From: Microbacterium sp. Nx66 | Lineage (GTDB): Bacteria; Actinomycetota; Actinomycetes; Actinomycetales; Microbacteriaceae | DNA: 64,000 bases | Assembly (NCBI RefSeq): GCF_904066215.1 | Contig: NZ_LR880474.1 | Coordinates: 1,488,001-1,552,000, forward strand | Reading direction: 5' to 3' | Program-made: the position numbers and the translations under genes | Part shown: piece by piece, positions 9,666 to 63,672 of the stretch | How positions within the stretch are numbered: position 1 is the stretch's first letter | Layout: each line of letters begins with the position of its first letter | The notes under the pieces: model-generated | The model's input: only the letters and a program-made list of their open reading frames with translations | Database searches by the model: none | What the model was told of the DNA's origin: nothing

Positions 9666-9677
9666 CGTCCACGGAGC

Positions 9678-10103: not shown

Positions 10104-10187
10104 GATTCCTCCGGTTCTGACGCCACCGGGGGAGCGGCGTCGCTTGGTCGCCAGCCTACCGAGCGAGACGGCCGCCGGGAACCGGGA

Positions 10188-10769
10188 TCACGCGGTGCGG
10201 CGCGTTCTCCCGGTCAGCCCGACGCGCTGCAGCAGGAGGTAGAGCTGGCAGCCGAGACAGAATGCGAACACGGCGTTGAGGAAAGCGGCGAGGAACGCCG
10301 CGGCTGTGGCGATCGGAAGGGCCCACGGCACGCCGGCGAGGTGGAGCAGGAGGCCGAGCCCCACCACGACGAGGCCCACGCCTTGGGCGAACCGCGGGGG
10401 GCGGGGATCCTCCAGTTCGACGGGCGGCGCCAGGCGCGGACGGACGAGGCGGCGGTAGAGCACGCCCCACGGTGCGGTGGCCGGCGAGACCACTCCCCAG
10501 AGGAACAGCAGCGCGATCAGCGTCGCAAGGAGGAAGCCCGGGTCGAGCACGCGCGCGACGGGCTCTACTGAGGGCAGTGCCCACGCGCCCCCCGGTACGA
10601 AGACGGAGCCGCTCTGCGGCTGGACGGCGAACCAGCCGGCGCGCTCTGCGCCGGCGGGAGTCGTGGAGATGCCGATGAGTGCGAGGAACGTCGCAACGGC
10701 GAGGAGGAATGCGGTGATCGCGGCGGCGAAACGGGGGCCTCGCGGGTCGATCCCAGCGGATGTCGTCAT
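10188..10769 (-). CDS. DUF4395 integral membrane protein
   Basis: A 193-residue protein with four membrane segments (AAITAFLLAVATFLALIG near residue 15, LATLIALLFLWGVVS, GVGLVVVGLGLLLHLAG, and ATAAAFLAAFLNAVFAFCLGCQLYLLL near 155). The C-terminal FCLGCQLYLLL with two cysteines spaced CLGC is the hallmark of DUF4395. Start ATG 10769 has GGAG seven nt upstream. It sits 20 bp after the membrane-anchored thioredoxin gene; DUF4395 proteins often neighbour thioredoxin or sulfurtransferase genes, so a thiol or sulfur relay across the membrane is a fair guess but not shown. Confidence 0.85.
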   Translation of the reverse strand: MTTSAGIDPRGPRFAAAITAFLLAVATFLALIGISTTPAGAERAGWFAVQPQSGSVFVPGGAWALPSVEPVARVLDPGFLLATLIALLFLWGVVSPATAPWGVLYRRLVRPRLAPPVELEDPRPPRFAQGVGLVVVGLGLLLHLAGVPWALPIATAAAFLAAFLNAVFAFCLGCQLYLLLQRVGLTGRTRRTA

Positions 10770-29849: not shown

Positions 29850-30219
29850 GGGGCTGATCGGTTTCGACAGCGCCTGTGAATCCACGAGAAGCGGGCCGAG
29901 GATGCAGAGTTATCTCGTAAACGCTCTCTGCAAAACAATAGTTGCCGAAACCAAGCGCAACGACTTCGCCCTCGCTGCCTAAGCGAGCCCGATAGTCCGT
30001 CAGACCGTATGTGATTCCGATACGGATCCTGGCGTCATCTAGGAATCTTGCTGCGTGACGGCGTCTGGACGTCACGTGGGACTCTTCCCAGGCTGGGCTC
30101 GTCGACTTAGGTGTCTGTGACAAAGGTCGGAGCCGAGCAGAACGCTTCCACAGACTGCGCCCGGAGAAGGCGTGGAGACTCAGCGTTGGACGGGGGTTCG
30201 ATTCCCCCCAGCTCCACCA
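29850..30219 (+). ncRNA. ssrA: transfer-messenger RNA (tmRNA)
   Basis: A one-piece tmRNA of about 370 nt for rescue of ribosomes on broken mRNAs. The 5' end GGGGCTGATCGGTTTCGACAG pairs through GGGGCT with AGCTCC at the 3' end, followed by the encoded ACCA. The T arm GGGGGTTCGATTCCCCCC is at 30191-30209. The tag frame and stop lie inside. The 3' part has the expected pseudoknot-rich region. A TAGTCT hexamer at 29769 could be its promoter, which would give a 5' extension removed by processing. Confidence 0.96.
29944..29982 (+). other. ssrA: tmRNA tag-peptide reading frame
   Basis: The tag reads AETKRNDFALAA then TAA, assuming GCC 29944 is the resume codon. The ALAA end is the actinobacterial degradation signal recognised by Clp proteases. 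Confidence 0.85.
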
Positions 30220-33043: not shown

Positions 33044-33116
33044 GCACCTCTAGCTCAATCGGCAGAGCAACTGACTCTTAATCAGTGGGTTCAGGGTTCA
33101 AGTCCCTGGGGGTGCA
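33044..33116 (+). tRNA. tRNA-Lys (anticodon CTT)
   Basis: A complete 73-nt cloverleaf: acceptor GCACCTC/GGGGTGC, D arm AGCTCAATCGGCAGAGC, anticodon stem ACTGA/TCAGT with loop CTCTTAA (anticodon CTT at 34-36), T arm CAGGGTTCAAGTCCCTG, discriminator A. CCA is not encoded. Confidence 0.97.
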
Positions 33117-33122
33117 CGGAAC

Positions 33123-50333: not shown

Positions 50334-50350
50334 CAGACATCCGATGTCTG
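50334..50350. promoter_or_regulatory. palindromic operator before the first GH29 gene
   Basis: CAGACATC-C-GATGTCTG is a perfect 8+8 palindrome with one central base, 15 nt before ATG 50366. Its core ACATCSGATGT is repeated at 52887-52897. Confidence 0.7.
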
Positions 50351-50365
50351 TGCCAGGATGGACGC

Positions 50366-51631
50366 ATGCGACAGGAATGGTTTGATGACGCCCGCTTCGG
50401 CATGTTCGTCCACTTCGGCCTCTACAGCGGGGCCGCGCGGCACGAGTGGGTGCAGAACTACGAACGCCTCACCGACGAGGAGTACCGCCCGTACTTCGAC
50501 AACTTCGATCCCGACCTCTTCGATGCCGCGGCCCTGGCGAAGACCGCCAAGGAGACGGGGATGGGCTACGTCGTGCTCACGACGAAGCACCACGACGGCT
50601 TCTGCCTCTGGGACTCGAAGCTGACCGACTTCACCTCCGTCGCGGCGGTCGGGCGCGACCTGGTGCGCGAGTACGTCGACGCCCTCCGTGCCGAGGGGAT
50701 CCGGGTCGGCCTCTACCACTCGGTCATCGACTGGCATCACCCCGACTTCACGGTGGACTGGAACCACCCGCGACGCGACGACGAGAACGCGCACGCCCTG
50801 AACGAGGGGCGCGACATGGCCCGCTACCGCGAGTACCTGCACGGTCAGGTCCGCGAGCTGCTCACCGGGTACGGCGACATCGACTACCTGTTCTTCGACT
50901 TCACCTACCCGGAGTCCAAGGACGGCTGGGAGGGGAAGGGGCCGCAGGACTGGGACGCCGAGGCGCTGCTCGCGCTGTGTCGGGAGCTGCAGCCGGAGAT
51001 GCTCGTCAACGACCGGCTCGGCATCCCCGCGGACTTCGTGACGCCCGAGCAGTATCAGCCGACGGCTCCCATCGTCCGCGACGGCGTGCCCCTCGTGTGG
51101 GAGGCATGCCAGACGCTCAACGGCTCCTGGGGGTACCACCGGGACAACACCGACCAGAAGTCGCCGGTGCTGCTCGCGCAGATGCTCGTCGACTCGGTGT
51201 CGATGGGCGGCAACATGCTCCTGAACATCGGCCCGGACGGGCGTGGGGCGATCGCGCCCCGGGATGCGGAGACCCTCGCCGAGATCGGGGAGTGGATGCG
51301 CCTGCACGACCGCGCCGTGATCGGGGCCGGTCACGCGCCGTTCACGCCGCCCCGTGAGGGCGTGTACACGCTCCGCGGCGACCGGCTCTACCTGAGCCTG
51401 TTCAGCTGGCCGCTGGGCTTCGTGCATCTGCCCGGTCTTGCGGGCAAGGTCTCGTATGCGCGGCTGCTGAACGACGGCTCCTGGCTGCGTACGAGCGTCA
51501 GCGACCCGGACCAGCAGGCCGACCTGATGACGCCGGCGGGCGAGGCCGAGGGGACGCTCACGGTGCATCTTCCGGTACGGCGTCCCGACGTGCTGATGCC
51601 GGTCATCGAACTGCGCCTCACGGGGGAGTGA
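50366..51631 (+). CDS. alpha-L-fucosidase, GH29 (copy 1)
   Basis: A 421-residue glycoside hydrolase starting directly with the GH29 barrel: WFDDARFGMFVHFGLYSG, VVLTTKHHDGFCLWDSKLTDF (conserved H-H-D-G-F), GLYHSVIDWHHPDF, and the nucleophile strand DIDYLFFDFTYPE (Asp near residue 177). NMLLNIGPDGRGAI is the C-terminal barrel marker. No signal peptide, so it works in the cytoplasm on imported oligosaccharides. AGGA lies about eight nt before ATG. Its operator and nearness to the ABC operon suggest one regulon. Relatives vary in specificity, so the exact linkage is open. Confidence 0.9.
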   Translation: MRQEWFDDARFGMFVHFGLYSGAARHEWVQNYERLTDEEYRPYFDNFDPDLFDAAALAKTAKETGMGYVVLTTKHHDGFCLWDSKLTDFTSVAAVGRDLVREYVDALRAEGIRVGLYHSVIDWHHPDFTVDWNHPRRDDENAHALNEGRDMARYREYLHGQVRELLTGYGDIDYLFFDFTYPESKDGWEGKGPQDWDAEALLALCRELQPEMLVNDRLGIPADFVTPEQYQPTAPIVRDGVPLVWEACQTLNGSWGYHRDNTDQKSPVLLAQMLVDSVSMGGNMLLNIGPDGRGAIAPRDAETLAEIGEWMRLHDRAVIGAGHAPFTPPREGVYTLRGDRLYLSLFSWPLGFVHLPGLAGKVSYARLLNDGSWLRTSVSDPDQQADLMTPAGEAEGTLTVHLPVRRPDVLMPVIELRLTGE

Positions 51632-51650
51632 GGCTGACGGTGGCGGCGGC

Positions 51651-52802
51651 TCAGGCCGTCGCCACCGGGATGTCCATGCCCTCGAGCGCGAGGCGGGCGG
51701 CGCCGTGCAGGATCGCGTCCGCGCCGGTGGCCGCGGCCTCGATCCGCAGGCGCTGGGTCGCGAGCGGGTGGCAGGCCTCGTAGACCCGGCTGCGCACCGC
51801 GGCGATGAACGGCTCGGAGGCGCTCATGCTCCCGGTGAGGAACAGGGCGTGCGGGTTGAAGAAGTTCACGACGCCGGACAGTGCCTGACCCAGGTGGGTC
51901 CCCGCGGTGCGGACGAGGGTCGTGGCGAGGGGGTCCGCGTCCCGCGCCAGCGTGAGGACGTCGGCCGTGGTGCGGACCTCGGTGTTGCCGCGCTCGCGCA
52001 TCTGGCGGACGAGGCTCGCGCCGCTGGCCACGGTCTCCAGGCAGCCGGTGTTGCCGCAGGAGCAGGGGATGTCGCCGCTGCCGTCGATCCGCGTATGCGT
52101 GATGTCGCCGGCTGCGGCGGTCGCTCCCCGATGGATGTGCCCGTCCACGATGATCCCGCTGCCGATCGCGGTGCCCGCCTTGACGGTGATGCTGTGCTGG
52201 GTGTGCCCGAGCTGGCGACGGTGCTCGCCGAGCGCGGCGAGGTTGGCGTCGTTGTCGACGACGACGGGGACGCCGTGGCGCTCCGCGAGGTGCTCGCCGA
52301 CGCGGAATCCGGGCCACCCCGGCATCCGCGAGGGCTGATCCACGGAGCCGGTCGCGACGTCGACGGGGCCGGGCAGGCTCACGCCGATCGCGTGGACCCG
52401 TGTCTCGGCGAGCAGGCGCTCGAAGACCTCCGACACTCTCTCCAGCGTCGCTTCCGGGCCGTCCGCGACGTCGATCGCGATGGTCTCCGAGTGGAGCAGG
52501 CCGCCGCTGAGGTCGTGCCGTCCGATGCGGGCATGGCGTCCGCCGAGATCGGCGGACAGCACGATGCCGTCGCCGGCGATCCGCAGCACGCGCGGCCGTC
52601 GTCCGCCGCGGGAGGTGCCGGCCCCCGCCTCCTCCAGCACGCCGGCATCGAGGAGCGCCTGTACGCGCAGGCCGACGGTCGACGCGGCCACGCCGAGGGC
52701 GGAGGCGAGTTCGGAGCGGGAGCGCGCCTGTCCGCGGGCGACGAAGTCGAGGATGCGCCGCGTGTGCGGGTCGTCGACGGTGGTGTCGGCGGGGTTCGTC
52801 AT
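51651..52802 (-). CDS. ROK family transcriptional regulator
   Basis: A 383-residue NagC/XylR-like regulator. The N-terminal winged HTH is FVARGQARSRSELASALGVAASTVGLRVQALLDAGVLEEAG (residues 18-60), and the ROK fold follows with GTAIGSGIIVDGHIHRGATAAAGDITH and the intact zinc motif CSCGNTGCLE. It converges on GH29 copy 1 and is divergent from the ABC operon. A TACGCT hexamer at 52830-52835 (reverse strand) would start its transcript about 20 nt before the ATG. Expected to repress both flanking units until a sugar binds. Confidence 0.92.
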   Translation of the reverse strand: MTNPADTTVDDPHTRRILDFVARGQARSRSELASALGVAASTVGLRVQALLDAGVLEEAGAGTSRGGRRPRVLRIAGDGIVLSADLGGRHARIGRHDLSGGLLHSETIAIDVADGPEATLERVSEVFERLLAETRVHAIGVSLPGPVDVATGSVDQPSRMPGWPGFRVGEHLAERHGVPVVVDNDANLAALGEHRRQLGHTQHSITVKAGTAIGSGIIVDGHIHRGATAAAGDITHTRIDGSGDIPCSCGNTGCLETVASGASLVRQMRERGNTEVRTTADVLTLARDADPLATTLVRTAGTHLGQALSGVVNFFNPHALFLTGSMSASEPFIAAVRSRVYEACHPLATQRLRIEAAATGADAILHGAARLALEGMDIPVATA

Positions 52803-52885
52803 GAAGGCCCTTCGTCTCGAGGCATCGTCAGCGTAGCGGGGGTGCCGCGTGTTTCAGGCGAGTGACGAAGTATCACCACCCTATA

Positions 52886-52898
52886 AACATCGGATGTT
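52886..52898. promoter_or_regulatory. palindromic operator before the ABC transporter operon
   Basis: AACATC-G-GATGTT, overlapping a TATAAA hexamer at 52882. It shares the 11-base core ACATCSGATGT with the operator at 50334-50350. A second imperfect inverted repeat (TTCGA-GCG-TCGAA, 52960-52972) stands nearer the start of the binding protein. Confidence 0.7.
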
Positions 52899-53001
52899 CA
52901 GCTTGCGGCACCTTGCGAACTATGACAGCGTAACTTCATACGAAATCCTAATTGGTTAGTTCGAGCGTCGAAATAACCTATCCCTTCTCAGGAGGCATTC
53001 A

Positions 53002-54261
53002 ATGAAGAAGTTGCGTGTGGGGGCTGTCGCCGCTGTCGCGGGCGTGGCCGTGGCGATGACCGGCTGTGCGAGCAGCGGGGGATCCGGGGGCTCGGCCGAC
53101 GGCGACACCATCGTGGTGGACATGTGGGCCGGCAGCGAGTCGGACGTCGATGCGCTGGAGGCGCAGATCGAGTTCGCGCAGAAGCAGAACCCGGACATCA
53201 AGATCAAGCTGCAGACGTCGCCGTGGAGTGACTTCTTCACCAAGCTCACGACCAACATGGCCAGCGGCAACATGGCGTGCATCACCGGCATGAGCGGCGC
53301 GCAGCTCGGCGGCTACACGGCCGGCTTCCGCGAGCTCAGCGACGAGGATCTCAAGACCGCGGGCATCGACTGGTCGGAGTTCAACCCGAGCGCCGACGGC
53401 ATCCTCAGCTTCGAGGGCAAGGTCTACGGCGTGCCGTTCGACGTCGCCACGATGCTCGTCTACTACAACCAGGACATGCTCAGCGCCGCCGGTGCCGCCA
53501 CGCCGGAGATCGGCTGGACGTTCGACGACTTCGACACGATCGCCGCCGACGCCACGAAGGACGGCAAGTACGGCTTCGGCATGGGCATGGGCGGCTACCA
53601 GTGGATGTCGATGCCGATCGCGTACTCCGCCACGCAGCCCGCCTCCGAGGACGGCACGCTGCACATCGACGACGAGGACTTCGTCGACGCCGCGTCCTGG
53701 TACGCCGGCCTGGTCACGGAGAAGAAGGTCGCGGCTCCGGTCGCCTCCGCCTCCGACACCGGCTGGGGCGAGAACCAGTACACGGGTGGCAACGCGGCCA
53801 TGGCCGTCGACGGCACCTGGAACGCCGTCAGCTACCTCAACAACGAGTCCGGCTTCGCCGCCGGCATGGTGCCGCTGCCCGCGGGCGTGGACGGCAACCC
53901 CGGTCCCATCCTCGGTTCCGGCTACGGCATCGCCGAGAACTGCAAGAACCCGGAGGCCGCGCTGAAGGTGCTCGGCTCCCTCGTCGGCGAGGACGCGCAG
54001 GACTACATCGCGTCGTCCGGCCGCTCCTACCCGGCCCGCATCTCGTCGCAGCCGCTGTACTTCGAGTCGATCGACGAGCAGTACCGCGACCAGGTCCAGT
54101 CGGTGTTCGAGGCCGCGTTCGGCGACACGGTGCCGCTGTACATGACCAAGAACTGGCAGAAGCTCGACAGCTACATCCAGCCCAACCTCGTCAGCGTCTA
54201 CAACGGCCAGATGACGATGGAGGAGCTGCTGTCGAACGCCCAGGCGCAGTTCGGCGAGTGA
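53002..54261 (+). CDS. sugar ABC transporter substrate-binding lipoprotein
   Basis: A 419-residue family 1 extracellular binding protein. The signal peptide [22 protein letters not shown] ends in a lipobox with Cys22, followed by a Gly/Ser linker. The mature part has [52 protein letters not shown] (typical of oligosaccharide binders) and [23 protein letters not shown] precedes ATG 53002. It delivers the sugar to the two permeases encoded next. No ATPase gene is present, so a shared MsiK-like ATPase elsewhere is expected. Confidence 0.94.
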
Positions 54262-54304
54262 GCCGGATCCGGCCCGCACAGCAGTAACAGAGAAAGACAA
54301 CGAG

Positions 54305-55210
54305 ATGACGATCACGACGAGACGTCGAGGATCGCTCGCCAAGGTCGAGGGCCGCCAGGCGCTGGGTTTCGCAAGCCCAGCCCTGGTGGGCCTCGCCCTG
54401 TTCACGATCGTGCCCGTGGGGCTCTCGATCGTGATGAGCGTCTTCGACTGGCCGACCTTCGGCGAACGCACCTTCAACGGGGTGGACAACTACGTCAAGC
54501 TGTTCACCAGCAGCCCGGACTTCTGGCCCGCGCTGCGCAACTCGGCGGTGTACACGCTGCTGTACGTGCCGTTGAGCGTCGCTCTCTCGCTCGTGCTCGC
54601 CCTCGGCCTCGGCCCCCGCATCCGCGGCCGCGGTGCCCTGCGCGTCCTCTTCTTCATCCCCGTCGTGACCCCGATGGTCGCGAACGTCCTGGTGTGGAAG
54701 ATGATGCTGCAGCCCCAGGGGCTCTTCAACGGCCTCTCGGTCACCTGGTTCGGCATCGAGCTGCCGAACTTCCTCGCCGACCCCAACTGGGCGATGATCA
54801 TGGTCGTCGTGATGAGCGTCTGGCAGGGACTCGGCTACAACATGCTGATCTTCTCCGCCGCCCTCGAGCAGCTCCCGGAGAGCGTCCTGGAAGCGGCCAG
54901 TATCGATGGCGCACAGGGCATCCGGCGTGTGTGGAGCATCATCATCCCGATGATCTCCCCGTCGATCTTCTTCGCGACGATCATGACGATGATCACCTCG
55001 CTCCAGGTCTTCGTCCAGCCGCAGATGCTCACCGGAGGCGGCCCCGGCAACGCCACCAAGCCCCTCGTGATGTACATCTGGGAGCAGGGCTTCACCTTCG
55101 GCGATCTCGGACTCGCCGCCGCCGCCGCGTGGATCCTGTTCGCGATCATCATCGCGATCACGGGCATCCAGTTCGCCGCACAGAAGAAGTGGGTGCACTA
55201 TGAGCACTGA
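54305..55210 (+). CDS. sugar ABC transporter permease (MalF type)
   Basis: A 301-residue membrane protein with six segments (GFASPALVGLALFTIVPVGLSIVMSVFD as TM1). The EAA loop that docks the ATPase is EAASIDGAQGIRRVWSIIIPMISP (near residue 195). MalF-like order with the following MalG-like gene, which overlaps it by 11 bases. Confidence 0.95.
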   Translation: MTITTRRRGSLAKVEGRQALGFASPALVGLALFTIVPVGLSIVMSVFDWPTFGERTFNGVDNYVKLFTSSPDFWPALRNSAVYTLLYVPLSVALSLVLALGLGPRIRGRGALRVLFFIPVVTPMVANVLVWKMMLQPQGLFNGLSVTWFGIELPNFLADPNWAMIMVVVMSVWQGLGYNMLIFSAALEQLPESVLEAASIDGAQGIRRVWSIIIPMISPSIFFATIMTMITSLQVFVQPQMLTGGGPGNATKPLVMYIWEQGFTFGDLGLAAAAAWILFAIIIAITGIQFAAQKKWVHYEH

Positions 55211-56114
55211 GACCCTCGTCCGGCCCACCGGCACCGCCCCGCGGCGTCAGCGCGAGCGGGAGAAGGCGCGTGGTGCGGCGACCACGCCGGGCGCGCGCGC
55301 CCGGCTGATCCTCGCGCACGTCACCATCTACGTCGCGGCGCTCATCTTCATCGCGCCGCTCGTCTACGCGTTCTTCTCGGCCCTCAAGCCGAACTCCGAG
55401 ATGTTCTCGATGCCGCCGACGCTCGTGGGCTCCGAGCTCCGCTGGAGCAACTTCGTCGACGTCTTCGCCTACGGACCGTTCCTCACGTACATCATGAACT
55501 CGTTCATCGTGGCGATCGGCGGCACCCTGGTCGTGCTCGTGGTGTCCACGACCGCCGGATACGCGTTCGGGCGCCTGCGCTGGAAGGGCCGCGACGCGGT
55601 CTTCGTCCTCTTCCTGGCCACGCTGATGGTGCCCGCCGAGGTGCTCGTCATCCCCATGTTCCAGGTCATGCAGTGGTTCAACTGGGTCGACACCTATCAA
55701 GCGCTCATCCTGCCCTTCGCGTTCGGCGCCTTCGGCACGTTCCTGATGCGGCAGTTCTTCCGCGGCATCCCCTACGAGCTGGAGGAGGCGGCCCGTGTCG
55801 ACGGCGCCGGCCCTGTCCGGTCCTTCCTGCAGATCATCCTGCCGCTGTCGAAGTCCGCGGTCGCGGTACTCGCGGTCTTCACGTTCCTGTCCTTCTGGAA
55901 CAGCTACCTCTGGCCCCTCATCGTCACGGTCGACTACAACGCGCACGGCACGCTGCCGGTCGGTCTGGCGAGCTTCGCCGGTCTCACCGGCACCCGGTGG
56001 GACCTGCAGATGGCCGCCGCCATCATCTCGATGATTCCGACCACCCTGCTCGTGATCGTGCTGCAGAAGCACCTGGTCAAGGGCATCGCGATGGCCGGAC
56101 TGGGCGGACGATGA
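55200..56114 (+). CDS. sugar ABC transporter permease (MalG type)
   Basis: A 304-residue permease with a basic N-terminus, six membrane segments and the EAA motif EEAARVDGAGPVRSFLQIILPLSK (near residue 198). It starts inside the end of the previous gene (ATG 55200) and its stop overlaps the ROK kinase start, so the whole import unit is translationally coupled. C-terminus QKHLVKGIAMAGLGGR is typical of the family. Confidence 0.95.
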   Translation: MSTETLVRPTGTAPRRQREREKARGAATTPGARARLILAHVTIYVAALIFIAPLVYAFFSALKPNSEMFSMPPTLVGSELRWSNFVDVFAYGPFLTYIMNSFIVAIGGTLVVLVVSTTAGYAFGRLRWKGRDAVFVLFLATLMVPAEVLVIPMFQVMQWFNWVDTYQALILPFAFGAFGTFLMRQFFRGIPYELEEAARVDGAGPVRSFLQIILPLSKSAVAVLAVFTFLSFWNSYLWPLIVTVDYNAHGTLPVGLASFAGLTGTRWDLQMAAAIISMIPTTLLVIVLQKHLVKGIAMAGLGGR

Positions 56115-57085
56115 ACGCGGTCGGGCAGCAGACGGACGACCCTCGACGAACGACCACGGGCCCCGGGTCCGACTTCGCTCTGGCGGGGGTGGACATCGGG
56201 GGCACGAAGATCGCGGCCCTCGTCGTGGACGCCTTCGGAGACGTCCTCGCACGCGGAAGCGTCCCGGCGCCCGCGAGCGTCGGCGGCTCGGCGATGGCGG
56301 ACGCCGCGGCCGGCCTCGTCGCGCGGCTGGCGGCCGAGGCCGGTGTCGCCGTCGCTGCGGTGGGGGTGGGTGCCGCAGGCGTCATCGACCATGAGAGCGG
56401 CACCATCCGTGCCGCATCCGCCCTGTTCGCAGACTGGGCGGGCTTTCCGCTCGGCCCGGAGCTGGCGCAGCGCGTCGGCGTCCCGGTGCGGGTGGAGAAC
56501 GACGTGAACGCCTTCCTCCTCGGAGAAGCCGCCGCGGCGGGTCCGAGCGTTCCCGATGTGCTCGGTGTGATGCTCGGCACGGGCGTCGGCGGCGCGCTGG
56601 TCATCGGCGGGGAGCTGCACCACGGCCCCCACGGCGCGGCCGGCGAGATCGGGCACACGCCCGGTTACAGCGACCTCGTCTGCACCTGCGGGCAGACCGG
56701 TCACCTGGAGACCCTGGCGTCCGGGACGTCGATCGCCCGGCGGTTCGAGGAGCGCACCGGTCGTCCGGTGAACGATGCCAGGGAGGTCGCGGAGGCCGCA
56801 CGGGCCGGCGACGCCGACGCCCGCGCCGTGTTCGACGCCGCCGGACGGGCGCTCGCTCTCGCCTGCGCCAGTGCCGCGACGCTCCTCGACCTGCCGATCG
56901 CCATCGTCGGCGGCGGGGTCACGGCCGCCTGGGACCTCCTGGAGCCGTCGATCGAGCGGACGCTCGGTACCGATGCCCCGGTGTCGGGCATCGCGCTGCG
57001 CGTCGTCCCCGCCGTCCTCGGAGCCGACGCCGTCGCGCTCGGCGCCATCGAGAGCGCACGACGCGCCCTCGCCCCCGTTTCCTGA
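56111..57085 (+). CDS. ROK family sugar kinase
   Basis: A 324-residue kinase of the ROK family, without the DNA-binding domain of ROK regulators. ATP motif LAGVDIGGTKIAALVVD (near residue 26), catalytic Asp in VENDVNAFLLGEAAAAG (near 132), GTGVGGALVIGGELHHGPHGAAGEIGHTP, and the zinc motif CTCGQTGHLET, where the third Cys of C-x-C-G-x2-G-C is His. It would phosphorylate a released sugar such as glucose, mannose or N-acetylglucosamine rather than fucose. ATG overlaps the permease stop. Confidence 0.9.
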   Translation: MNAVGQQTDDPRRTTTGPGSDFALAGVDIGGTKIAALVVDAFGDVLARGSVPAPASVGGSAMADAAAGLVARLAAEAGVAVAAVGVGAAGVIDHESGTIRAASALFADWAGFPLGPELAQRVGVPVRVENDVNAFLLGEAAAAGPSVPDVLGVMLGTGVGGALVIGGELHHGPHGAAGEIGHTPGYSDLVCTCGQTGHLETLASGTSIARRFEERTGRPVNDAREVAEAARAGDADARAVFDAAGRALALACASAATLLDLPIAIVGGGVTAAWDLLEPSIERTLGTDAPVSGIALRVVPAVLGADAVALGAIESARRALAPVS

Positions 57086-57117
57086 CCACGACTGCGACCG
57101 CAGAGGAGAACACCACC

Positions 57118-58698
57118 GTGACCGCACGCCCGGAAGCCCACGAGATCTGGATGGGTCCGCTGCCGCCGCTCGCCGAGGGCGGGCTCGCGCGGCCCCGGAT
57201 CGGCATCGGCGGCATCTCCATCGAGTCGAGCACCTTCTCCCCGCATATCTCCGGGGACGAGGCCTTCACGATCCGCACCGGCGATGCACTGCGGGCGTAC
57301 TACCCGTTCCTCGACGCCGGACGCGAGCTCGCCGAGGCCGCGGAGTGGGTCCCGCTCACGCACGGCCGTTCGCTGCCCGGCGGTGCCGTGGACCCGGACA
57401 CCTACCGCCGGATGAAGGACGCGATCGTCGAGGGGATCCGCACGCAGGGGCCGTTCGACGGATTCTTCTTCGACATCCACGGCGCGATGAGCGTCGTCGG
57501 GATGGACGATGCCGAGGGCGACCTCGCTCTCGCGGTGCGGGACGCCCTGGGCCCGGACACCCTCGTCTCCACATCGATGGACCTGCACGGCAACGTCTCG
57601 GAGACTCTGCGCGACGCGGTGGATCTGCTCACCTGCTACCGGATGGCGCCGCATGAGGACTGGCTGAACACGAAGGAGCGGGCGGTGTGGAACCTGCTCG
57701 ACCGTCTCCGTGGACCGCACGGCGGCGACGTGCAGGCGCGGCGGCCCTTCACCGCCTGGGTGCCCGTACCCGTGCTGCTGCCGGGGGAGAAGACCAGCAC
57801 GCGGTTGGAACCCGCGCGGAGCATCTATGCCGAGCTCCCCGAGATCGAGGCGCTGCCGGGCGTCGTGGACGCGTCGGTGTGGATCGGCTACGCATGGGCC
57901 GACGAGCCGCGCTGCCAGGCGTACGTCGTGGTCACCGGGGACGACAGGGAGGTCATCGCCCGTGAGGCGGAGCGCGTGGCCCGGATGTTCTGGGAGGCAC
58001 GGGAGGACTTCGTCTTCGTCGCGAAGACGGGAAGCCTCGACGACGCGCTGGAGGAGGCGCTGGCCCTCGGTGCCCCGCGTCCGTACGTGATCTCCGACTC
58101 CGGGGACAACCCGACGGCCGGGGGAGCGGGCGATGTGACCTGGTCCCTCGCCCACCTGCTGCAGCGACCCGAGCTCACCGACGGCACGCACACGACGCTG
58201 GTCGCCTCGATCTTCGATCCGCGGGCCGTCGCCGAAGCCGTGGAGGCGGGCGTCGGTGCGACGGTCACGCTGTCAGCCGGAGCCGCGGTCGATTCCGGGC
58301 CCCACGGACCGGTCGAGATCACCGGAACGGTGTTCTCCGTCACCGACGGCGACCCGGACGCCGGCACCCAGGTGGTGCTCGCGGTCGGCGGGCTGCACGC
58401 CATCGTGACCGAGCGCCGCAAGCCCTTCCACCACCTCTCCGACTTCCGGATGCTGGGGCTCGAGCCGACGACGGCCGACATCGTGGTCGTGAAGATCGGC
58501 TACCTGGAGCCGGAGCTGTACGAGCTGGCAGCGGGATGGACGCTGGCGCTCACCCCGGGCGGGGTGGACCAGGACCTGCTCCGCCTCGGACACCATCGCC
58601 TGCGCCCCGGGGTGTTCCCGTTCGACACGACAGGCGACCCCGATCTGACCGCGGTGGTCGTGCGCCGCGGGGCCGACGAGGAGGACACGGCATCATGA
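57118..58698 (+). CDS. M81 family metallopeptidase-like protein (MlrC/DUF1485 type)
   Basis: A 526-residue protein of the MlrC (microcystinase C) family. Visible: GIGGISIESSTFSPHISGDEAF (N-terminal motif with conserved Glu-Ser-Ser-Thr-Phe), FFFDIHGAMSVVGMDDAEGDL (near residue 119, metal-binding Asp/His), STSMDLHGNVSETL (near 156), and ISDSGDNPTAGGAGDVTW. The family includes a zinc-dependent peptidase of linearised microcystin, while most members have no known substrate and are found beside transporters. No signal peptide, so cytoplasmic. GTG 57118 follows AGAGGAG. Stop overlaps the GH29 start by four bases. Its presence in a sugar operon is unexplained. Confidence 0.85.
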   Translation: MTARPEAHEIWMGPLPPLAEGGLARPRIGIGGISIESSTFSPHISGDEAFTIRTGDALRAYYPFLDAGRELAEAAEWVPLTHGRSLPGGAVDPDTYRRMKDAIVEGIRTQGPFDGFFFDIHGAMSVVGMDDAEGDLALAVRDALGPDTLVSTSMDLHGNVSETLRDAVDLLTCYRMAPHEDWLNTKERAVWNLLDRLRGPHGGDVQARRPFTAWVPVPVLLPGEKTSTRLEPARSIYAELPEIEALPGVVDASVWIGYAWADEPRCQAYVVVTGDDREVIAREAERVARMFWEAREDFVFVAKTGSLDDALEEALALGAPRPYVISDSGDNPTAGGAGDVTWSLAHLLQRPELTDGTHTTLVASIFDPRAVAEAVEAGVGATVTLSAGAAVDSGPHGPVEITGTVFSVTDGDPDAGTQVVLAVGGLHAIVTERRKPFHHLSDFRMLGLEPTTADIVVVKIGYLEPELYELAAGWTLALTPGGVDQDLLRLGHHRLRPGVFPFDTTGDPDLTAVVVRRGADEEDTAS

Positions 58699-60044
58699 TG
58701 AACTTCGAGAAGCGCACCGGCCCCGACTTCGGTGCGGCGTCCCCGGTCTACCCCGCGAACGGCGTGCCGGACTGGTACCGCGACGCCAAGCTCGGCTTCT
58801 TCGTGCACTGGGGGCTGTACTCCGTGCCGGCGTGGGCCGTGCAGCACGGGGAGGGCGTGAACATCCCCACCGAGGATGCCTATGCGTGGCACCAGTACGC
58901 GGAGTGGTACGGCAACACGGTGCGCATCCCGGGCAGCCCGACGTGGGAGCGCCACCAGCGCACCTACGGTCCTGGGACCTCGTACGAGGACCTCGCCGAC
59001 CAGTGGGACGCCGACGCCTTCGATGCCGAGGCCTTCGTCGGTGAACTCGTCGCGGCCGGAGCGCGCTATGTCGTGCCCACGACCAAGCACCACGAGGGGT
59101 TCTGTCTGTGGGACACCGCCACGACCGGATTCAACGCCGTCGCGCGCGGCCCTCGCCGTGACCTCATCTCCGAGTTCCACGACGCCACGCGGCGGGCGGG
59201 AGCCAAGTTCGGCGTGTACTACTCCGGAGCGCTCGACTGGCACGTCAGCGACTTCCCGCCGATCGAGTCGGACACCGACCTGTTCCGGTTCCGTCGCAAC
59301 GACGCCCACTTCTCCCGCTACGCCGCCGCGCAGCTCGAGGAGCTCGTGGAGCGGTTCGCGCCCGACGTGCTCTGGAACGACATCGAGTGGCCGGACGGCG
59401 GCAAGGGCACGGAGGAGTACGCCGTGGCCGCACTCCTGCAGCGGTACTTCGACGCCGTCCCGGACGGTGTGGTCAACGACCGCTGGGGTGTGCCGTACCA
59501 CGGGTTCCTCACCCGCGAATACACGGACATCCCGGACATCATCCCCGAGCCGTGGGAGTCGACCCGCGGGCTCGGCTACTCGTTCGGGTTCAACCAGGCG
59601 GAGGACGAGCGCCACTCGCTGTCCGGGGCGGCCCTGATCCGGCTCCTCGTCGACGTCGTCGCGAAGAACGGCAACCTGCTCATCAACGTCGGCCCCGCGG
59701 CGGACGGATCCATTCCGGCGCTGCAGCGGAAGGCGATGCAGGAGCTCGGCAGCTGGCTGGCCGTGAACGGTGCGGCGATCTACGGCACGCGGCCCTGGAC
59801 GCGGATGGGGGAGCGCACGGGGGCTCCTCGCCGCTACACCACGTCCACCGACGCGGTGCACGTGCATGCGCTCGACCCGGCGGACGGCGAGTTCGAGCTG
59901 CCGTCCGAGCTCACGGCCGCTGCGCTGTCGTGGGCCGACGGGACCCCGGCGGAGGTGTCCGCAGACGGCGGTTCGACCCGCATCGTGATCCCGGCCGGTC
60001 TCCGCGAGGCTCCGGTCGCCGTGCTCACCGCGCACGGCGCCTGA
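58695..60044 (+). CDS. alpha-L-fucosidase, GH29 (copy 2)
   Basis: A 449-residue hydrolase: WYRDAKLGFFVHWGLYSVPAWA, EDAYAWHQYAEWYGNTVR, VVPTTKHHEGFCLWDTATTGFNAV, GVYYSGALDWHVSDFPP and nucleophile motif PDVLWNDIEWPDGG (Asp near residue 225), matching classical GH29 (family A-like) enzymes; copy 1 has a different nucleophile motif. NGNLLINVGPAADGSI ends the barrel. No signal peptide. ATG 58695 overlaps the M81 stop (ATGA); a second ATG lies one codon later. Last gene of the operon, before a strong terminator. Confidence 0.93.
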   Translation: MMNFEKRTGPDFGAASPVYPANGVPDWYRDAKLGFFVHWGLYSVPAWAVQHGEGVNIPTEDAYAWHQYAEWYGNTVRIPGSPTWERHQRTYGPGTSYEDLADQWDADAFDAEAFVGELVAAGARYVVPTTKHHEGFCLWDTATTGFNAVARGPRRDLISEFHDATRRAGAKFGVYYSGALDWHVSDFPPIESDTDLFRFRRNDAHFSRYAAAQLEELVERFAPDVLWNDIEWPDGGKGTEEYAVAALLQRYFDAVPDGVVNDRWGVPYHGFLTREYTDIPDIIPEPWESTRGLGYSFGFNQAEDERHSLSGAALIRLLVDVVAKNGNLLINVGPAADGSIPALQRKAMQELGSWLAVNGAAIYGTRPWTRMGERTGAPRRYTTSTDAVHVHALDPADGEFELPSELTAAALSWADGTPAEVSADGGSTRIVIPAGLREAPVAVLTAHGA

Positions 60045-60057
60045 CACAGGCTCCGCA

Positions 60058-60091
60058 GAAGGGCCCCCGTCGGATCCGACGGGGGCCCTTC
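60058..60091. terminator. bidirectional terminator of the fucosidase operon
   Basis: A perfect 34-bp palindrome (two 17-base arms), starting 13 nt after the GH29 stop. The converging dehydrogenase gene ends 10 nt beyond, so it can stop both transcripts. Confidence 0.85.
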
Positions 60092-60100
60092 GTCGCTGAG

Positions 60101-62935
60101 CTAGGGGCGCGTGCGCTCCTCGAGAACCTCGATCACGTGGCGGTACGGGCGGCCGGTGGCGCGGGTCATGCCGATCTCGCACGTGCGGTTGGCCGACACG
60201 AAGGCGTCGAAGCCGCCGCGGGCCGTATCGGCCGCGGAGACTTCGGCCGATTCCTGGGCTGTCGCGCTCGCGGTGAGCTCGGGGTGCAGCATGCCGCGGT
60301 CACCGGCGAACGCGCAGCAGCCCCAGCCGTCGGGCACGAAGACCTCGTCAGCGACGGCGGCGGCGATCGCTGTCAGCGCCCCGGTCGCGCCGAGCGCGGT
60401 CGTCGAACAGGTCGGGTGCACGGCGATCGAGGGGAGCTTCGCATCGACGGAGAGGCGCGGCAGCACCTCCCGCGCGACGAACGTGGTGGCGTCCTCGATG
60501 CGCAGACCGGCGTACTCCGGATGGGCGGCGACGGCCTGGGTGAGCATGACGTCGAGGCCCTCGGTGCAGGAGGCCGCGTCGCAGACGACCGGGAGCTCCC
60601 CGTGGCGGCTGGCGTCCCAGAGCGAGGCCAGCACCCGGTCGGACATGAGGCGATAGCCGTCGAGGTGCCCCTTGGACTTCCACGGTGTCCCGCAGCAGAG
60701 CCCGCCGTTCTCCTCCGGGACCACGACGGGGATCCCGGCGCGGTCGAGCAGGGCGCGCAGGGCGTCGCGGGAGCCGGGACCCTCGTCCTCCGGACCGAAC
60801 ATCGTGCCGATGCAGGCGCCGAAGAAGACGGCCTGGGCGTCGGGAGGCGAGACCGGTCGAGGCGGCGCGGTGCCGCCGCGGGGGAGACCCCCGTCGTAGA
60901 GGGGGACGGTATCGGCGCCGAGCACCGCCCGTCCGACCCGCGTCGCGCCGCGCACGAGCGGGACGGGGAGAGCATCGGCGACCGTGAGGGCGACGCCGCC
61001 GGCGCGAGTGACGGTGCTCCAGTGCTTCGCCGCCGTCCCCCAGGCCGCACCCTCCACCGCGTTCTCCTGCTCGGCCCGGAGGCGGCGGACGAGGTCGCCG
61101 GTGTTGATGTCCACCGGACACGCGACGCCGCACATGCCGTCGACCGCGCAGGTCTGCACGCCGTCGTAGTCGTAGTCCGCGCGCAGGTCCCGCAGCAGCG
61201 CCGTGTCGCCCTGCTCCTCGGCCCAGGCCATGTCCCGGCGCAGCACGATGCGCTGCCGCGGGGTGAGCGTGATGCTCTTGCTCGGGCAGGTCGGCTCGCA
61301 GTAGCCGCACTCCACGCAGCGGTCCACCTCGCGCTCCACCGTGGGCACGCGCTTGAGATCCCGGAGGTACGAGTCCGGGTCGTCGGACAGCACGACGCCG
61401 GGGTTGAGGATCCCGTCCGGATCGAACAGCCGCTTGATCTCCCACATCATGTCGGTGAGCTCGTCGCCGTACTGACGCCGCACGAACGGCGCCATGATGC
61501 GTCCGGTACCGTGCTCGGCCTTGAGGGATCCCTCCTGTGCGAGGACGAGCTCGACGAGGTCGTCCGTGAAGCGGCGGTACCGCGCCACGCTCTCGGGGTC
61601 GTCGAAGCGCTCGTTCAGCAGGAAGTGGACGTTGCCGTCCTTCGCGTGCCCGAAGATCACGGAGCCCTCGTAGCCGTGCTCCGCGAACAGCTCGATCAGT
61701 CGCTCGCAGGTGGCCAGCAGCCGGGGGACGGGGACGACGATGTCTTCGAGGAGCGCGGTCGTCCCGGACGGCCGCGCCCCGGCGACAGCGGTGTAGAGGC
61801 CCTTGCGGACGTGCCACAGTGCGGCGCGCTCGGCGGCATCGGTCGTCAGGCGTGGGGCGACGGCGAGGGGGAGGGCATCGAAGTGCGCCTGCGCTGATGC
61901 GCTCGCGACGGCGAGGGCGTCGTCATCCACGGCGTGCACCTCGACCAGGAGGGCGGCGTGGCCCTGGACGTCGATCTCGGAGATCGCGGCGGGGACGTCG
62001 CTCAGGCCCTGGGCGACGCGCAGTGAGGCGGCGTCCAGGAGCTCGATCGTCGCGAGTCCGAGCTCCGTGAGAGCGGGGAGCGCGGTCATCGCCGCCGACA
62101 GCGTCTCGAAGACGAGCAGACCGGTGGCGATCGCGGGGCGCACCTCGATGGTGCGGAAACGGGCCTCCGCGACGAAGCCGAGGGTCCCTTCCGATCCGAT
62201 GAGGAGGTGCTCCAGGATCCGCACCGGGTCGTCGAAGTCGAGCAGGGCGTTCAGGCCGTAGCCCATCGTGTTCTTCATCGAGAACTGCTGCCGCAGGAAG
62301 GCGACGTTCCCGGGCGAGGCGAGCAGACGCTCCCGGAGCGACGACAGTCCGGCGAACAGGGCGGGTTCCGCGGCGCGGAGCACGTCCGCGGCGTCCGCGC
62401 GTCCGGTGTCCAGGACGGTGCCGCTGGGCAGTACGACGACCATCGACGTGATCGTCTGGTACGAGTTCTCCGTGATGCCGCAGGCCATGCCGCTGGAGTT
62501 GTTCGCGACGACGCCGCCGATCGTGCAGGCGATCTCGCTGGCCGGATCCGGCCCGAGCTTGCGGCGATACCGGGCCAGCCGCGTGTTCACCTGCCGGACG
62601 GTGGCCCCGGGGCCGACCCTGACCGCGGCGCCGTCGTCCTCGATGTGGATGTCGCGGAAGTGGCTGCGCGTGTCGACGAGGATATCGCCGCTGATGCCCT
62701 GTCCGGAGAGGCTGGTGCCGCCGGAGCGGAACGTGAGCGTGCGTCCGGCCGCCCGGACCGCCGAGAACGCGCGGGCGACGCCCTCGGCGTCCGCGGGGGA
62801 CAGCACCGCGTCCGGGACGAGCAGGTAATGCGAGGCGTCGTGGGCGCGGGCGAAGCGGTCGATGGATCGGGCGTGGACCTGCGTCTCGGGCCCCAGCAGT
62901 GCGGGATCGAGGGGGTGGTCGAGGGTGGTGGGCAC
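60101..62935 (-). CDS. FAD/Fe-S D-2-hydroxyacid dehydrogenase (D-lactate or D-2-hydroxyglutarate type)
   Basis: A 944-residue fusion of three parts. Residues 1-480 are a GlcD/Dld-like FAD domain (TFRSGGTSLSGQGISGDILVDT, GGVVANNSSGMACG, IGSEGTLGFVAEA, and the VIFGHAKDGNVHF motif). About 530-600 hold two iron-sulfur motifs, CVECGYCEPTCP and CAVDGMCGVACP, where the second has Asp in place of one Cys, as in related enzymes. The C-terminal part has CCG domains (GGLCCGTPW and GWGCCAFAGDRG). This is the layout of D-lactate dehydrogenases and YdiJ. GTG 62935 with AGAGGAG upstream is preferred; a TTG at 62971 inside the operator is unlikely. Confidence 0.9.
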   Translation of the reverse strand: MPTTLDHPLDPALLGPETQVHARSIDRFARAHDASHYLLVPDAVLSPADAEGVARAFSAVRAAGRTLTFRSGGTSLSGQGISGDILVDTRSHFRDIHIEDDGAAVRVGPGATVRQVNTRLARYRRKLGPDPASEIACTIGGVVANNSSGMACGITENSYQTITSMVVVLPSGTVLDTGRADAADVLRAAEPALFAGLSSLRERLLASPGNVAFLRQQFSMKNTMGYGLNALLDFDDPVRILEHLLIGSEGTLGFVAEARFRTIEVRPAIATGLLVFETLSAAMTALPALTELGLATIELLDAASLRVAQGLSDVPAAISEIDVQGHAALLVEVHAVDDDALAVASASAQAHFDALPLAVAPRLTTDAAERAALWHVRKGLYTAVAGARPSGTTALLEDIVVPVPRLLATCERLIELFAEHGYEGSVIFGHAKDGNVHFLLNERFDDPESVARYRRFTDDLVELVLAQEGSLKAEHGTGRIMAPFVRRQYGDELTDMMWEIKRLFDPDGILNPGVVLSDDPDSYLRDLKRVPTVEREVDRCVECGYCEPTCPSKSITLTPRQRIVLRRDMAWAEEQGDTALLRDLRADYDYDGVQTCAVDGMCGVACPVDINTGDLVRRLRAEQENAVEGAAWGTAAKHWSTVTRAGGVALTVADALPVPLVRGATRVGRAVLGADTVPLYDGGLPRGGTAPPRPVSPPDAQAVFFGACIGTMFGPEDEGPGSRDALRALLDRAGIPVVVPEENGGLCCGTPWKSKGHLDGYRLMSDRVLASLWDASRHGELPVVCDAASCTEGLDVMLTQAVAAHPEYAGLRIEDATTFVAREVLPRLSVDAKLPSIAVHPTCSTTALGATGALTAIAAAVADEVFVPDGWGCCAFAGDRGMLHPELTASATAQESAEVSAADTARGGFDAFVSANRTCEIGMTRATGRPYRHVIEVLEERTRP

Positions 62936-62960
62936 GGTGCTCCTCTGCTCCGCTCGAAGA

Positions 62961-62971
62961 TTGTCAGACAA
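62961..62971. promoter_or_regulatory. GntR-type operator between dehydrogenase and regulator genes
   Basis: TTGTC-A-GACAA, a perfect 11-base palindrome of the T-x-GT-x3-AC-x-A class bound by FadR/FCD-type GntR proteins. It lies 26 nt before the dehydrogenase start and 26 nt before the gntR -10. Confidence 0.7.
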
Positions 62972-62996
62972 GTGTACTGAACGACGGACGCCTCAC

Positions 62997-63002
62997 TAGA
63001 CT
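62997..63002 (+). promoter_or_regulatory. -10 element of the gntR gene
   Basis: TAGACT, spacer GTTCCGC, then ATG 63010; no Shine-Dalgarno. Confidence 0.6.
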
Positions 63003-63009
63003 GTTCCGC

Positions 63010-63672
63010 ATGACCTCGATCGCGGAGCGCCCCCTCGGCGTGGTCGGCGTGGTCGACGCCGTGACCGGACAGCTGCGCAGCCGGATCCTCTCCGGCGAGA
63101 TCCGCTCGGGGGAGCCTCTGACCGAGGCGGCCGTCTCCCAGACCTACGGCGTCGCCCGTCCCAGCGCCAAAGCGGCCATCGAGCAGCTCGTGGCCAGCGG
63201 GCTGCTCGTGCGGACGGCGCATCGCACGGCGCGCGTGGTCGGCATCGAGGCGGAGACCGTCCGCGACGTCTACCGCACGCGGATCCGGCTGGAGAGCGCG
63301 GCACTACGCGAGCTGGCGGAGAGCGCCGCCGTGCCGGCGGCCGCCGTGGCGGCGAACGCCGAGCTGCAGGCGATGGCACCTGGCCCCGATCCCGCGACGG
63401 TCGATCCCGACCTCCGTTTCCACATGGCGCTCATCGACGCCCTGGGCAGCGAGCGGACCAGCCGCATGTACCGGAGCGTGCTGGACGAGGTGCGGCTGTG
63501 CATGGCGCAGGTGCAGGGTCGGCGTCTCCTGGATGCCGACCTCATCGCCGCCCAGCACGCCGAGATGCTCGAGGCCGTCGCCGCCGGCGACGCGGAGCGC
63601 GCGGCCGCGGTGCTGCATGCCCACCTCGCCTCGGCGGAGGACCGTCTCGTCGAGGCCCTGAGCGCCTCCTGA
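63010..63672 (+). CDS. GntR family transcriptional regulator with FCD domain
   Basis: A 220-residue FadR-subfamily regulator. The winged HTH is residues 15-75 (VTGQLRSRILSGEIRSGEPLTEAAVSQTYGVARPSAKAAIEQLVASGLLV), and the helical FCD domain follows with metal-ligand residues in DPDLRFHMALIDALG (Asp/His near 137) and AAQHAEMLEAVAAGD (His near 181), a pattern of ligand domains for small carboxylic acids. Divergent to the 2-hydroxyacid dehydrogenase, which it probably controls in response to its substrate. Confidence 0.92.
   Translation: MTSIAERPLGVVGVVDAVTGQLRSRILSGEIRSGEPLTEAAVSQTYGVARPSAKAAIEQLVASGLLVRTAHRTARVVGIEAETVRDVYRTRIRLESAALRELAESAAVPAAAVAANAELQAMAPGPDPATVDPDLRFHMALIDALGSERTSRMYRSVLDEVRLCMAQVQGRRLLDADLIAAQHAEMLEAVAAGDAERAAAVLHAHLASAEDRLVEALSAS

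What the first reader, a model, noticed from the sequence alone, without database searches (positions are those of the whole stretch)
50334..60091. Candidate fucoside-utilisation system with two GH29 enzymes, ABC importer, ROK kinase and an M81 protein
Gene content indicates import of a fucosylated oligosaccharide and its intracellular cleavage: two GH29 fucosidases of different subgroups, both without signal peptides, a binding lipoprotein and two permeases, a ROK kinase for the other sugar, and a dedicated ROK repressor. Neither fucose isomerase, fucose dehydrogenase nor the ABC ATPase is present. The combination with an M81 protein has no described pathway that I know of.
Basis: partly seen in the sequence, partly recalled or inferred. 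Interest (0 to 1): 0.7.

Follow-up and report, generated by a model that had tools for sequence, protein, structure and literature searches.

The report
Fucosidase operon with unexplained M81 hydrolase
A bacterium, probably a Microbacterium, carries a conserved gene set that probably imports small fucose-tagged sugar–amino-acid fragments of glycoproteins and takes them apart inside the cell, with an M81 metallo-hydrolase of unknown function sitting where other bacteria use a known sugar–asparagine-cutting enzyme.

Summary
At 50366-60044 lie two GH29 fucosidases, a ROK repressor, a carbohydrate ABC importer without ATPase, a ROK kinase and an M81 protein. The set is conserved: 38 of 198 genus genomes carry the GH29-2 orthologue, 37 of them with M81 within 36 bases. 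A palindrome, RACATCSGATGTY, occurs exactly five times in this genome: at both promoters here and three times at a distant locus encoding an L-fucose dehydrogenase-type pathway.

M81 is the open point. Its relatives often keep company with a ROK kinase, a CutC-family protein and changing importers (sugar, oligopeptide, amino acid), or with GH20 hexosaminidase (9 of 10 rhizobial loci read). In Bacteroidia, CutC instead often neighbours glycosylasparaginase, sometimes inside N-glycan loci. The genus almost lacks that enzyme family (3 of 198). I infer that M81 hydrolyses the sugar–amino-acid amide of (fucosyl-)GlcNAc-Asn or short glycopeptides, like AsnA2 in L. casei. This step rests on gene company only; no activity is shown.

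The parts
50336..50348 (.). Palindromic operator GACATCCGATGTC in the GH29-1 promoter (fucose-regulon site)
   Evidence: Exact RACATCSGATGTY, 5 exact sites in the 3.46 Mb genome; exact site upstream of the GH29-1 orthologue in 21 of 26 genus loci that could be read
50366..51631 (+). GH29-1 alpha-L-fucosidase, 421 aa, cytoplasmic by N-terminus
   Evidence: PF01120 280 bits; nearest solved 6gn6, 376 bits
51651..52802 (-). ROK-family transcriptional repressor, 383 aa with N-terminal HTH
   Evidence: PF00480 and HTH_20
52886..52898 (.). Palindromic operator AACATCGGATGTT in the transporter promoter
   Evidence: exact upstream of SBP in 22 of 27 genus loci that could be read
52954..52978 (.). Candidate ROK-repressor operator GGTTAGTTCG-N5-CGAAATAACC
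   Evidence: Exact match once in the genome; exact in 14 and within 3 mismatches in 23 of 27 SBP upstreams, exact in 0 of 26 GH29-1 upstreams
53002..54261 (+). Sugar-binding lipoprotein of a CUT1-type ABC importer
   Evidence: PF01547 102 bits; lipobox-like N-terminus by eye
54305..55210 (+). ABC permease A
   Evidence: PF00528
55200..56114 (+). ABC permease B
   Evidence: PF00528
56111..57085 (+). ROK-family sugar kinase, 324 aa
   Evidence: PF00480 194 bits, scanned on a longer frame; nearest solved are glucokinases (3vgk 127 bits), then a GlcNAc kinase 97 and a ManNAc kinase 95 bits
57118..58698 (+). M81 (MlrC-type) metallo-hydrolase, 526 aa; proposed glycosyl-amino-acid amidase
   Evidence: PF07364 + PF07171; 7ylq/3iuu by sequence and fold; metal ligands E36, D155, H157, H179 invariant in 14 sequences
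58695..60044 (+). GH29-2 alpha-L-fucosidase, 449 aa; start codon overlaps the M81 stop
   Evidence: PF01120 293 bits; 376 bits to T. maritima fucosidase 1hl8, aligned D229 and E275

Best explanation
The cluster imports and breaks down core-fucosylated sugar–amino-acid fragments of N-glycoproteins, most likely fucosyl-GlcNAc-asparagine or short glycopeptides. Steps: (1) the lipoprotein and two permeases import the fragment [family assignment shown, substrate inferred]; (2) the two GH29 enzymes remove L-fucose in the cytoplasm [family shown, linkage unknown]; (3) M81, a zinc-type amide hydrolase, splits the sugar from the amino acid, doing the job that glycosylasparaginase does elsewhere [inferred from gene company only]; (4) the ROK kinase phosphorylates the released sugar, probably GlcNAc, which enters the amino-sugar route [inferred]; (5) L-fucose is oxidised by the dehydrogenase/fuconate pathway at 3.09 Mb, tied to this cluster by a shared operator, presumably read by the GntR/FadR regulator encoded there [operator sharing shown, binding protein inferred]. 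The local ROK repressor adds substrate-specific control at the transporter promoter [palindrome shown, binding inferred].
For: Shared operator, five exact sites genome-wide, reversed-pattern control 0; distal locus gene content; in L056, L064 and L071 the fucose genes lie beside the cluster. Conservation: 37 of 38 GH29-2 carriers have M81 next to it, largest gap 36 bases. M81 + ROK kinase stay while the importer changes to amino-acid type (SBP_bac_3, L084) or oligopeptide type (SBP_bac_5). CutC within 8 kb in 24 of 38 clade-1 and 17 of 26 clade-2 M81 loci of the genus, rough chance 0.003 per locus. CutC within 3 kb of a PF01112 (glycosylasparaginase-type) gene in at least 17 of 48 Bacteroidia genomes with CutC over cut-off; 5 of 8 such loci read hold N-glycan-type enzymes, L211 being PNGaseF–PF01112–CutC–GH92–GH29–GH29. 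GH20 directly before M81 in 9 of 10 Rhizobiaceae loci read, CutC in two. PF01112 over cut-off in 3 of 198 genus genomes, no match in this one. Precedent with the same logic: L. casei alf-2 (PMC6960285, Results section read).
Against: No activity, growth or expression evidence. The kinase is closest to glucokinases. This genome's own CutC is not in the cluster, and 14 of 38 clade-1 loci lack it nearby. The NagA search is weak support: at E 0.001 it rings in all 14 control genomes, only 128 of 198 genus genomes pass the cut-off, and this genome's best hit (7.2e-64) is weaker than hits marked under it. G001 has the cluster and also a PF01112 gene. M81's fold matches only M81 structures, and MlrC's general base E70 aligns with R59. 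25 of 80 named M81 relatives show none of the partners sought; five Bacteroidota copies viewed look exported. 31 of 48 Bacteroidia CutC genomes show no listed PF01112 neighbour (truncated list). Three loci (L062, L121, L125) carry a sulfatase, which GlcNAc-Asn would not need. Endoglycosidases in this genome were not searched.
Confidence: 0.48

Rival explanations
1. Plain fucosyl-oligosaccharide utilisation: the cluster takes up a fucosylated di- or trisaccharide (milk-, mucin- or plant-type), GH29s release fucose, the kinase handles the neutral sugar, and M81 is a general peptidase or a rider with another role.
For: Two GH29 and a CUT1-type sugar importer; kinase nearest to glucokinases; more distant GH29-2 homologues (45-47% identity) sit with sugar ABC genes and no M81 in L072, L075, L076, L077 and L079; G043 has GH29-2 and the importer without M81 (L063).
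Against: M81 is kept next to GH29-2 in 37 of 38 carriers and persists without GH29 genes when importers change (L084, L124 and Dpp-type loci). No further glycosidase for a longer oligosaccharide is in the cluster.
Confidence: 0.28
2. M81 is a muropeptide amidase or peptidase; the module salvages cell-wall or other N-acetyl-sugar peptides, and the GH29 genes are a later addition.
For: MlrC cleaves an amide next to a D-glutamyl residue (recalled); oligopeptide-type importers in the sister loci; MurR/RpiR regulator and GH20 in rhizobia; in Maribacter (L150, L151) M81 lies near genes that look like a D-Ala-D-Ala carboxypeptidase and a dipeptide epimerase (by eye).
Against: No MurNAc etherase was noticed in the clusters read, though none was searched for by profile; the fucose operator and GH29 pair have no place in peptidoglycan salvage; the Flavobacteriaceae neighbours look like one syntenic block in related genomes.
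Confidence: 0.1
3. M81 removes the N-acyl group of a GlcNAc-type sugar (a deacetylase or deacylase), for example in chitin-oligomer or fucosylated lipochitooligosaccharide breakdown.
For: Metal amidohydrolase chemistry; GH20 beside M81 in rhizobia; fucosylated reducing-end GlcNAc occurs in some Nod factors (recalled).
Against: The partner shared with Bacteroidia is CutC beside PF01112 genes; a NagA-type deacetylase over cut-off is already present in 128 of 198 genus genomes, though not shown over cut-off in this one.
Confidence: 0.09

Closest known systems
Lactobacillus casei alf-2 pathway for fucosyl-alpha-1,6-GlcNAc-Asn (AlfH, AlfC, AsnA2, SugK, PepV, AsdA, AlfR2; PMC6960285, Results section read)
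   Same: Importer + intracellular GH29 + ROK kinase + an amide-splitting step; local repressor; a peptidase-type gene in the cluster
   Different: Here an ABC importer instead of MFS, two GH29s, M81 in place of the PF01112 glycosylasparaginase, a ROK instead of a GntR local repressor, and a co-regulated distal fucose pathway where L. casei excretes fucose
MlrC, microcystinase C, M81 family (7ylq; PMC9982164, passages read)
   Same: Domain pair PF07364 + PF07171, same fold (TM 0.76 and 0.80 to 7ylq_A and 3iuu, by query length), four metal ligands aligned
   Different: About 26% identity over the structural alignment; MlrC general base E70 aligns with R59; clustered with sugar genes
Bacteroidia loci with a glycosylasparaginase-type PF01112 gene + CutC (for example L211, L208)
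   Same: CutC partner; in some, GH29 and N-glycan enzymes
   Different: PF01112 enzyme instead of M81, no fold relation seen between the two
Non-phosphorylating L-fucose pathway (fuconate dehydratase, lactonase, diketo-hydrolase; recalled for Xanthomonas and others; one search was a listing only)
   Same: The enzyme families are present at 3.09 Mb
   Different: Joined to this cluster by the palindrome RACATCSGATGTY, for which I know no published description (not searched for in print)

Membership tests
GH29 alpha-L-fucosidases | PF01120 catalytic domain above curated cut-off | tested here: met
   280 and 293 bits against cut-off 25.2
GH29 alpha-L-fucosidases | Catalytic Asp nucleophile and Glu acid/base (roles recalled for T. 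maritima D224, E266) | tested here: met
   GH29-2 D229 and E275 align with those positions of 1hl8; for GH29-1 an aligned Asp and Glu are present against 6gn6, roles not verified
M81 / MlrC family | PF07364 and PF07171 domains, M81 fold | tested here: met
M81 / MlrC family | Four zinc ligands (E39, D167, H169, H191 in MlrC; the paper prints the last as H196 in one place) | tested here: met
   E36, D155, H157, H179, invariant in 14 sequences
Microcystinase MlrC proper | General base E70 and NCBIfam cut-off 999 bits | tested here: not met
   126 bits; aligned residue is R59
L. casei alf-2 type Fuc-GlcNAc-Asn pathway | PF01112 glycosylasparaginase | tested here: not met
   No PF01112 match in this genome
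L. casei alf-2 type Fuc-GlcNAc-Asn pathway | GH29 + importer + ROK kinase in one cluster | tested here: met
L. casei alf-2 type Fuc-GlcNAc-Asn pathway | Growth on and induction by Fuc-GlcNAc-Asn | not testable with these tools
   needs bench work
Non-phosphorylating L-fucose pathway | L-fuconate dehydratase | tested here: met
   634 bits to 1yey, 81 bits to rhamnonate dehydratase
Non-phosphorylating L-fucose pathway | Fucose dehydrogenase, lactonase, keto-deoxy-fuconate dehydrogenase and diketo hydrolase | tested here: inconclusive
   AKR, Amidohydro_2, SDR and FAA_hydrolase families present; substrate specificity not shown

The most novel reading that the evidence does not exclude
A branch of the M81 family is an unrecognised metal-dependent glycosyl-amino-acid amidase that replaces glycosylasparaginase in Actinomycetota and Rhizobiaceae, and the 'copper homeostasis' protein CutC is in truth an enzyme of the same pathway, acting after the amide is cut (for example on the unstable glycosylamine).
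Probability: 0.35. Interest if true: 0.82.

Novelty: new variant of a known kind. Interest (0 to 1): 0.64.

Why it matters
In the papers listed, M81 has one characterised activity (linearised microcystin); CutC's bacterial role is, as I recall, unsettled. If the reading is right, one substrate (GlcNAc-Asn) would give both families a function, explain how many actinobacteria could use glycoprotein remnants without glycosylasparaginase, and give a new enzyme for cutting N-glycan cores. It is directly testable with purified protein and GlcNAc-Asn. The fucose operator gives a ready regulon marker for the genus.

Tried and rejected
Rejected: microcystin degradation (26% identity, general base not conserved, sugar context). 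Rejected: that the fucose pathway is absent. Considered and left: that the ROK repressor reads RACATCSGATGTY; a separate ROK-type palindrome exists and the fucose site also lies at the distant locus beside a GntR gene, so GntR is the likelier reader, but binding is untested. Tried without gain: papers on M81, CutC and ROK kinases gave, in the listings, no function beyond MlrC; the ROK kinase's nearest structures did not decide the sugar; the PF01112 genes of G089, G042 and G001 lie in peptide-transport surroundings by eye, not glycan loci; a scan for AT-rich inverted repeats found no common one in 29 Dpp-type promoter regions. NCBIfam naming of the distal locus failed on coordinates and was not repeated; Pfam and PDB were used instead. 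The five one-mismatch fucose-operator sites (L008-L012) were not read.

Rows dropped before counts: in the clade-1/clade-2 CutC count I left out G030 (contig end), G113, G044, G067 and one of two G093 pieces, and clade 2 keeps partial matches (G007, G093, G057:C12). G216 and G339 (CutC below cut-off) and a second G351 piece were left out of the Bacteroidia count; the PF01112 table was truncated, so 17 of 48 is a lower bound; G203, the centre of that draw, carries M81. Of the 17 I fetched 8. Of 140 plasmid records with M81, 30 were listed and 13 fetched, 10 of them Rhizobiaceae (two are one species, S. fredii). In the M81 tree rows with alignments under 380 letters were dropped. The operator count mixed two sources with near-duplicates, so I report.
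Full report
What is there. The window (G000:C1:1488001-1552000 of a 3.46 Mb genome) holds, after ilvD-B-N-C, GH29-1 (50366-51631), a divergent ROK repressor (51651-52802) and an operon of binding protein, two permeases, ROK kinase, M81 and GH29-2 (53002-60044). The genome's name is not given; ilv genes and M81 are closest to named Microbacterium records, so the genus is probably Microbacterium. The two GH29 genes are the only ones found in the genome.

Link to fucose catabolism. I noticed the palindrome GACATCCGATGTC before GH29-1 and AACATCGGATGTT before the binding protein. The 13-mer RACATCSGATGTY has five exact places in the whole genome and five more with one mismatch, which I did not read; the reversed-pattern control has none. 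Three of the exact places lie at 3.096-3.099 Mb. That locus encodes a fuconate dehydratase (634 bits to 1yey against 81 for rhamnonate dehydratase), an aldo/keto reductase, an SDR, an amidohydrolase, an FAA hydrolase and a GntR/FadR regulator; one of the three sites lies inside the start of the FAA-hydrolase gene. In three relatives the fucose genes lie beside the cluster (L056, L064, L071). Among 28 loci of the genus, the site is exact before GH29-1 in 21 of 26 and before the binding protein in 22 of 27 that could be read. A second palindrome, GGTTNNTTCGN5CGAANNAACC, lies at the transporter promoter; this genome has one exact copy, and its three 3-mismatch places are no more than the three of the control. 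It is exact in 14 and within 3 mismatches in 23 of 27 transporter promoters, and exact in none of 26 GH29-1 promoters. It fits a local ROK operator.

Conservation. GH29-2 at 70% identity or more is found in 38 of 198 genus genomes, M81 at 70% or more in 39, one of them cut by a contig end. 37 of the 38 GH29-2 carriers have M81 within 36 bases; G043 is the exception, and G192 has M81 without GH29-2. In the M81 tree the window sits in a supported set of 23 rows, 22 of GH29 type and one of amino-acid-importer type; the GH29 label needs 6 changes against 26.9 in shuffles, though near-copies inflate such clustering.

What M81 goes with. The pair M81 + ROK kinase mostly persists while the importer changes: sugar type with GH29; amino-acid type with SBP_bac_3 and no GH29 in G192 (L084, M81 70% identical and intact); oligopeptide type with SBP_bac_5 in the sister branch. 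L124 has sugar importer, kinase and M81 without GH29. This suggests that the M81 substrate carries an amino acid and a sugar.

CutC as a bridge. CutC lies within 8 kb of M81 in 24 of 38 clade-1 and 17 of 26 clade-2 loci of the genus, against a rough chance of 0.003 per locus; this genome's CutC lies elsewhere, at 3.02 Mb. In 149 Bacteroidia genomes, 48 have CutC over cut-off, and at least 17 have a PF01112 gene within 3 kb, 14 of these 39-173 bases away. PF01112 also covers other asparaginases; the glycosylasparaginase reading of these genes rests on motif and context. In 11 Bacteroidota genomes reached through M81, nine have such a neighbour by motif (L193 unresolved, L190 not). Of 8 of these 17 loci read, 5 hold N-glycan-type enzymes: L211 PNGaseF-PF01112-CutC-GH92-GH29-GH29, L208 GH92-GH2-CutC-PF01112-GH20, and L207, L209, L212 with a GH2 of mannosidase type; in L205, L206 and L210 I recognised none by eye. 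In rhizobia, 9 of 10 loci read have GH20 directly before M81, two of them also CutC; Spirosoma oryzicola has a GH92 gene near its M81. PF01112 is over cut-off in 3 of 198 genus genomes, one of which (G001) also has the cluster, and gives no match in this genome. So M81 takes the place next to CutC that a glycosylasparaginase-type gene takes elsewhere. This is gene-company evidence and not proof; the five Bacteroidota M81 copies viewed have export-type N-termini and lack these partners.

Chemistry. The AlphaFold model (mean pLDDT 88.7) matches, at E 0.001, only M81 structures, 3iuu and 7ylq. The MlrC metal ligands named in PMC9982164 (passages read) align with E36, D155, H157 and H179, all invariant in 14 sequences; MlrC's general base E70 aligns with R59. 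So it is a metal amide hydrolase by family, with a different active-site base and probably a different substrate.

Precedent. In L. casei, AlfH, AlfC (GH29), AsnA2 (glycosylasparaginase) and SugK (ROK GlcNAc kinase) degrade fucosyl-alpha-1,6-GlcNAc-Asn; mutants of each of these four failed to grow on it, while the pepV mutant grew normally (PMC6960285, Results). The present cluster has the same logic with different parts. My searches of the held library (listings) showed no paper that joins M81 to fucosides or glyco-amino acids.

Limits. The kinase's nearest structures are glucokinases. The NagA search does not help much: its loose threshold rings in all 14 control genomes, 128 of 198 genus genomes pass the cut-off, and this genome's best hit appears to fall short of it. 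A sulfatase occurs in L062, L121 and L125; for L062, the one tested, the nearest structures are S1_15 enzymes. It is not explained by the simple substrate. No ENGase, PNGase or ABC ATPase search of this genome was made.

Noticed in passing
L062 (G098) 8872-10404; L121; L125 8463-9980: A sulfatase gene sits in three M81/GH29-2 loci; the L062 copy is nearest to S1_15 structures. The substrate there may be sulfated.
   Followed up: partly
L097, L098 (G113) and L099 (G044): Clustered M81 paralogues at about 34-44% identity (five within about 26 kb in G113, three in a row in G044), beside oxidoreductase-like, acyl-CoA-type and MFS-like genes (by eye).
   Followed up: no
L189, L191, L192, L194-L198, L200, L205-L212: CutC is often the direct neighbour of a glycosylasparaginase-type PF01112 gene in Bacteroidia, which argues against a copper-only role.
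   Followed up: yes
L214-L216, L218-L222, L225 (Rhizobiaceae megaplasmids): Conserved block of second M81 / RidA-RpiR-SDR-GH20-M81 (mostly with MFS, CutC in two); RidA hydrolyses imines (recalled) and might handle a glycosylamine.
   Followed up: partly
L150, L151, L152, L157, L171 (Bacteroidota): M81 homologues with signal-peptide or lipoprotein-like N-termini, outside any sugar cluster recognised.
   Followed up: no
window 60101-62971 (-) and 62899-63672 (+): FAD/4Fe-4S oxidase of the GlcD / 2-hydroxyglutarate dehydrogenase type with a divergent GntR/FCD regulator; beside the cluster only in some relatives, probably separate.
   Followed up: partly
L008-L012 (G000): Five one-mismatch copies of the fucose operator elsewhere in the genome, neighbours not read.
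   Followed up: no
window 29850-30219 and 33044-33117: tmRNA gene (tag AETKRNDFALAA) and tRNA-Lys(ctt).
   Followed up: no
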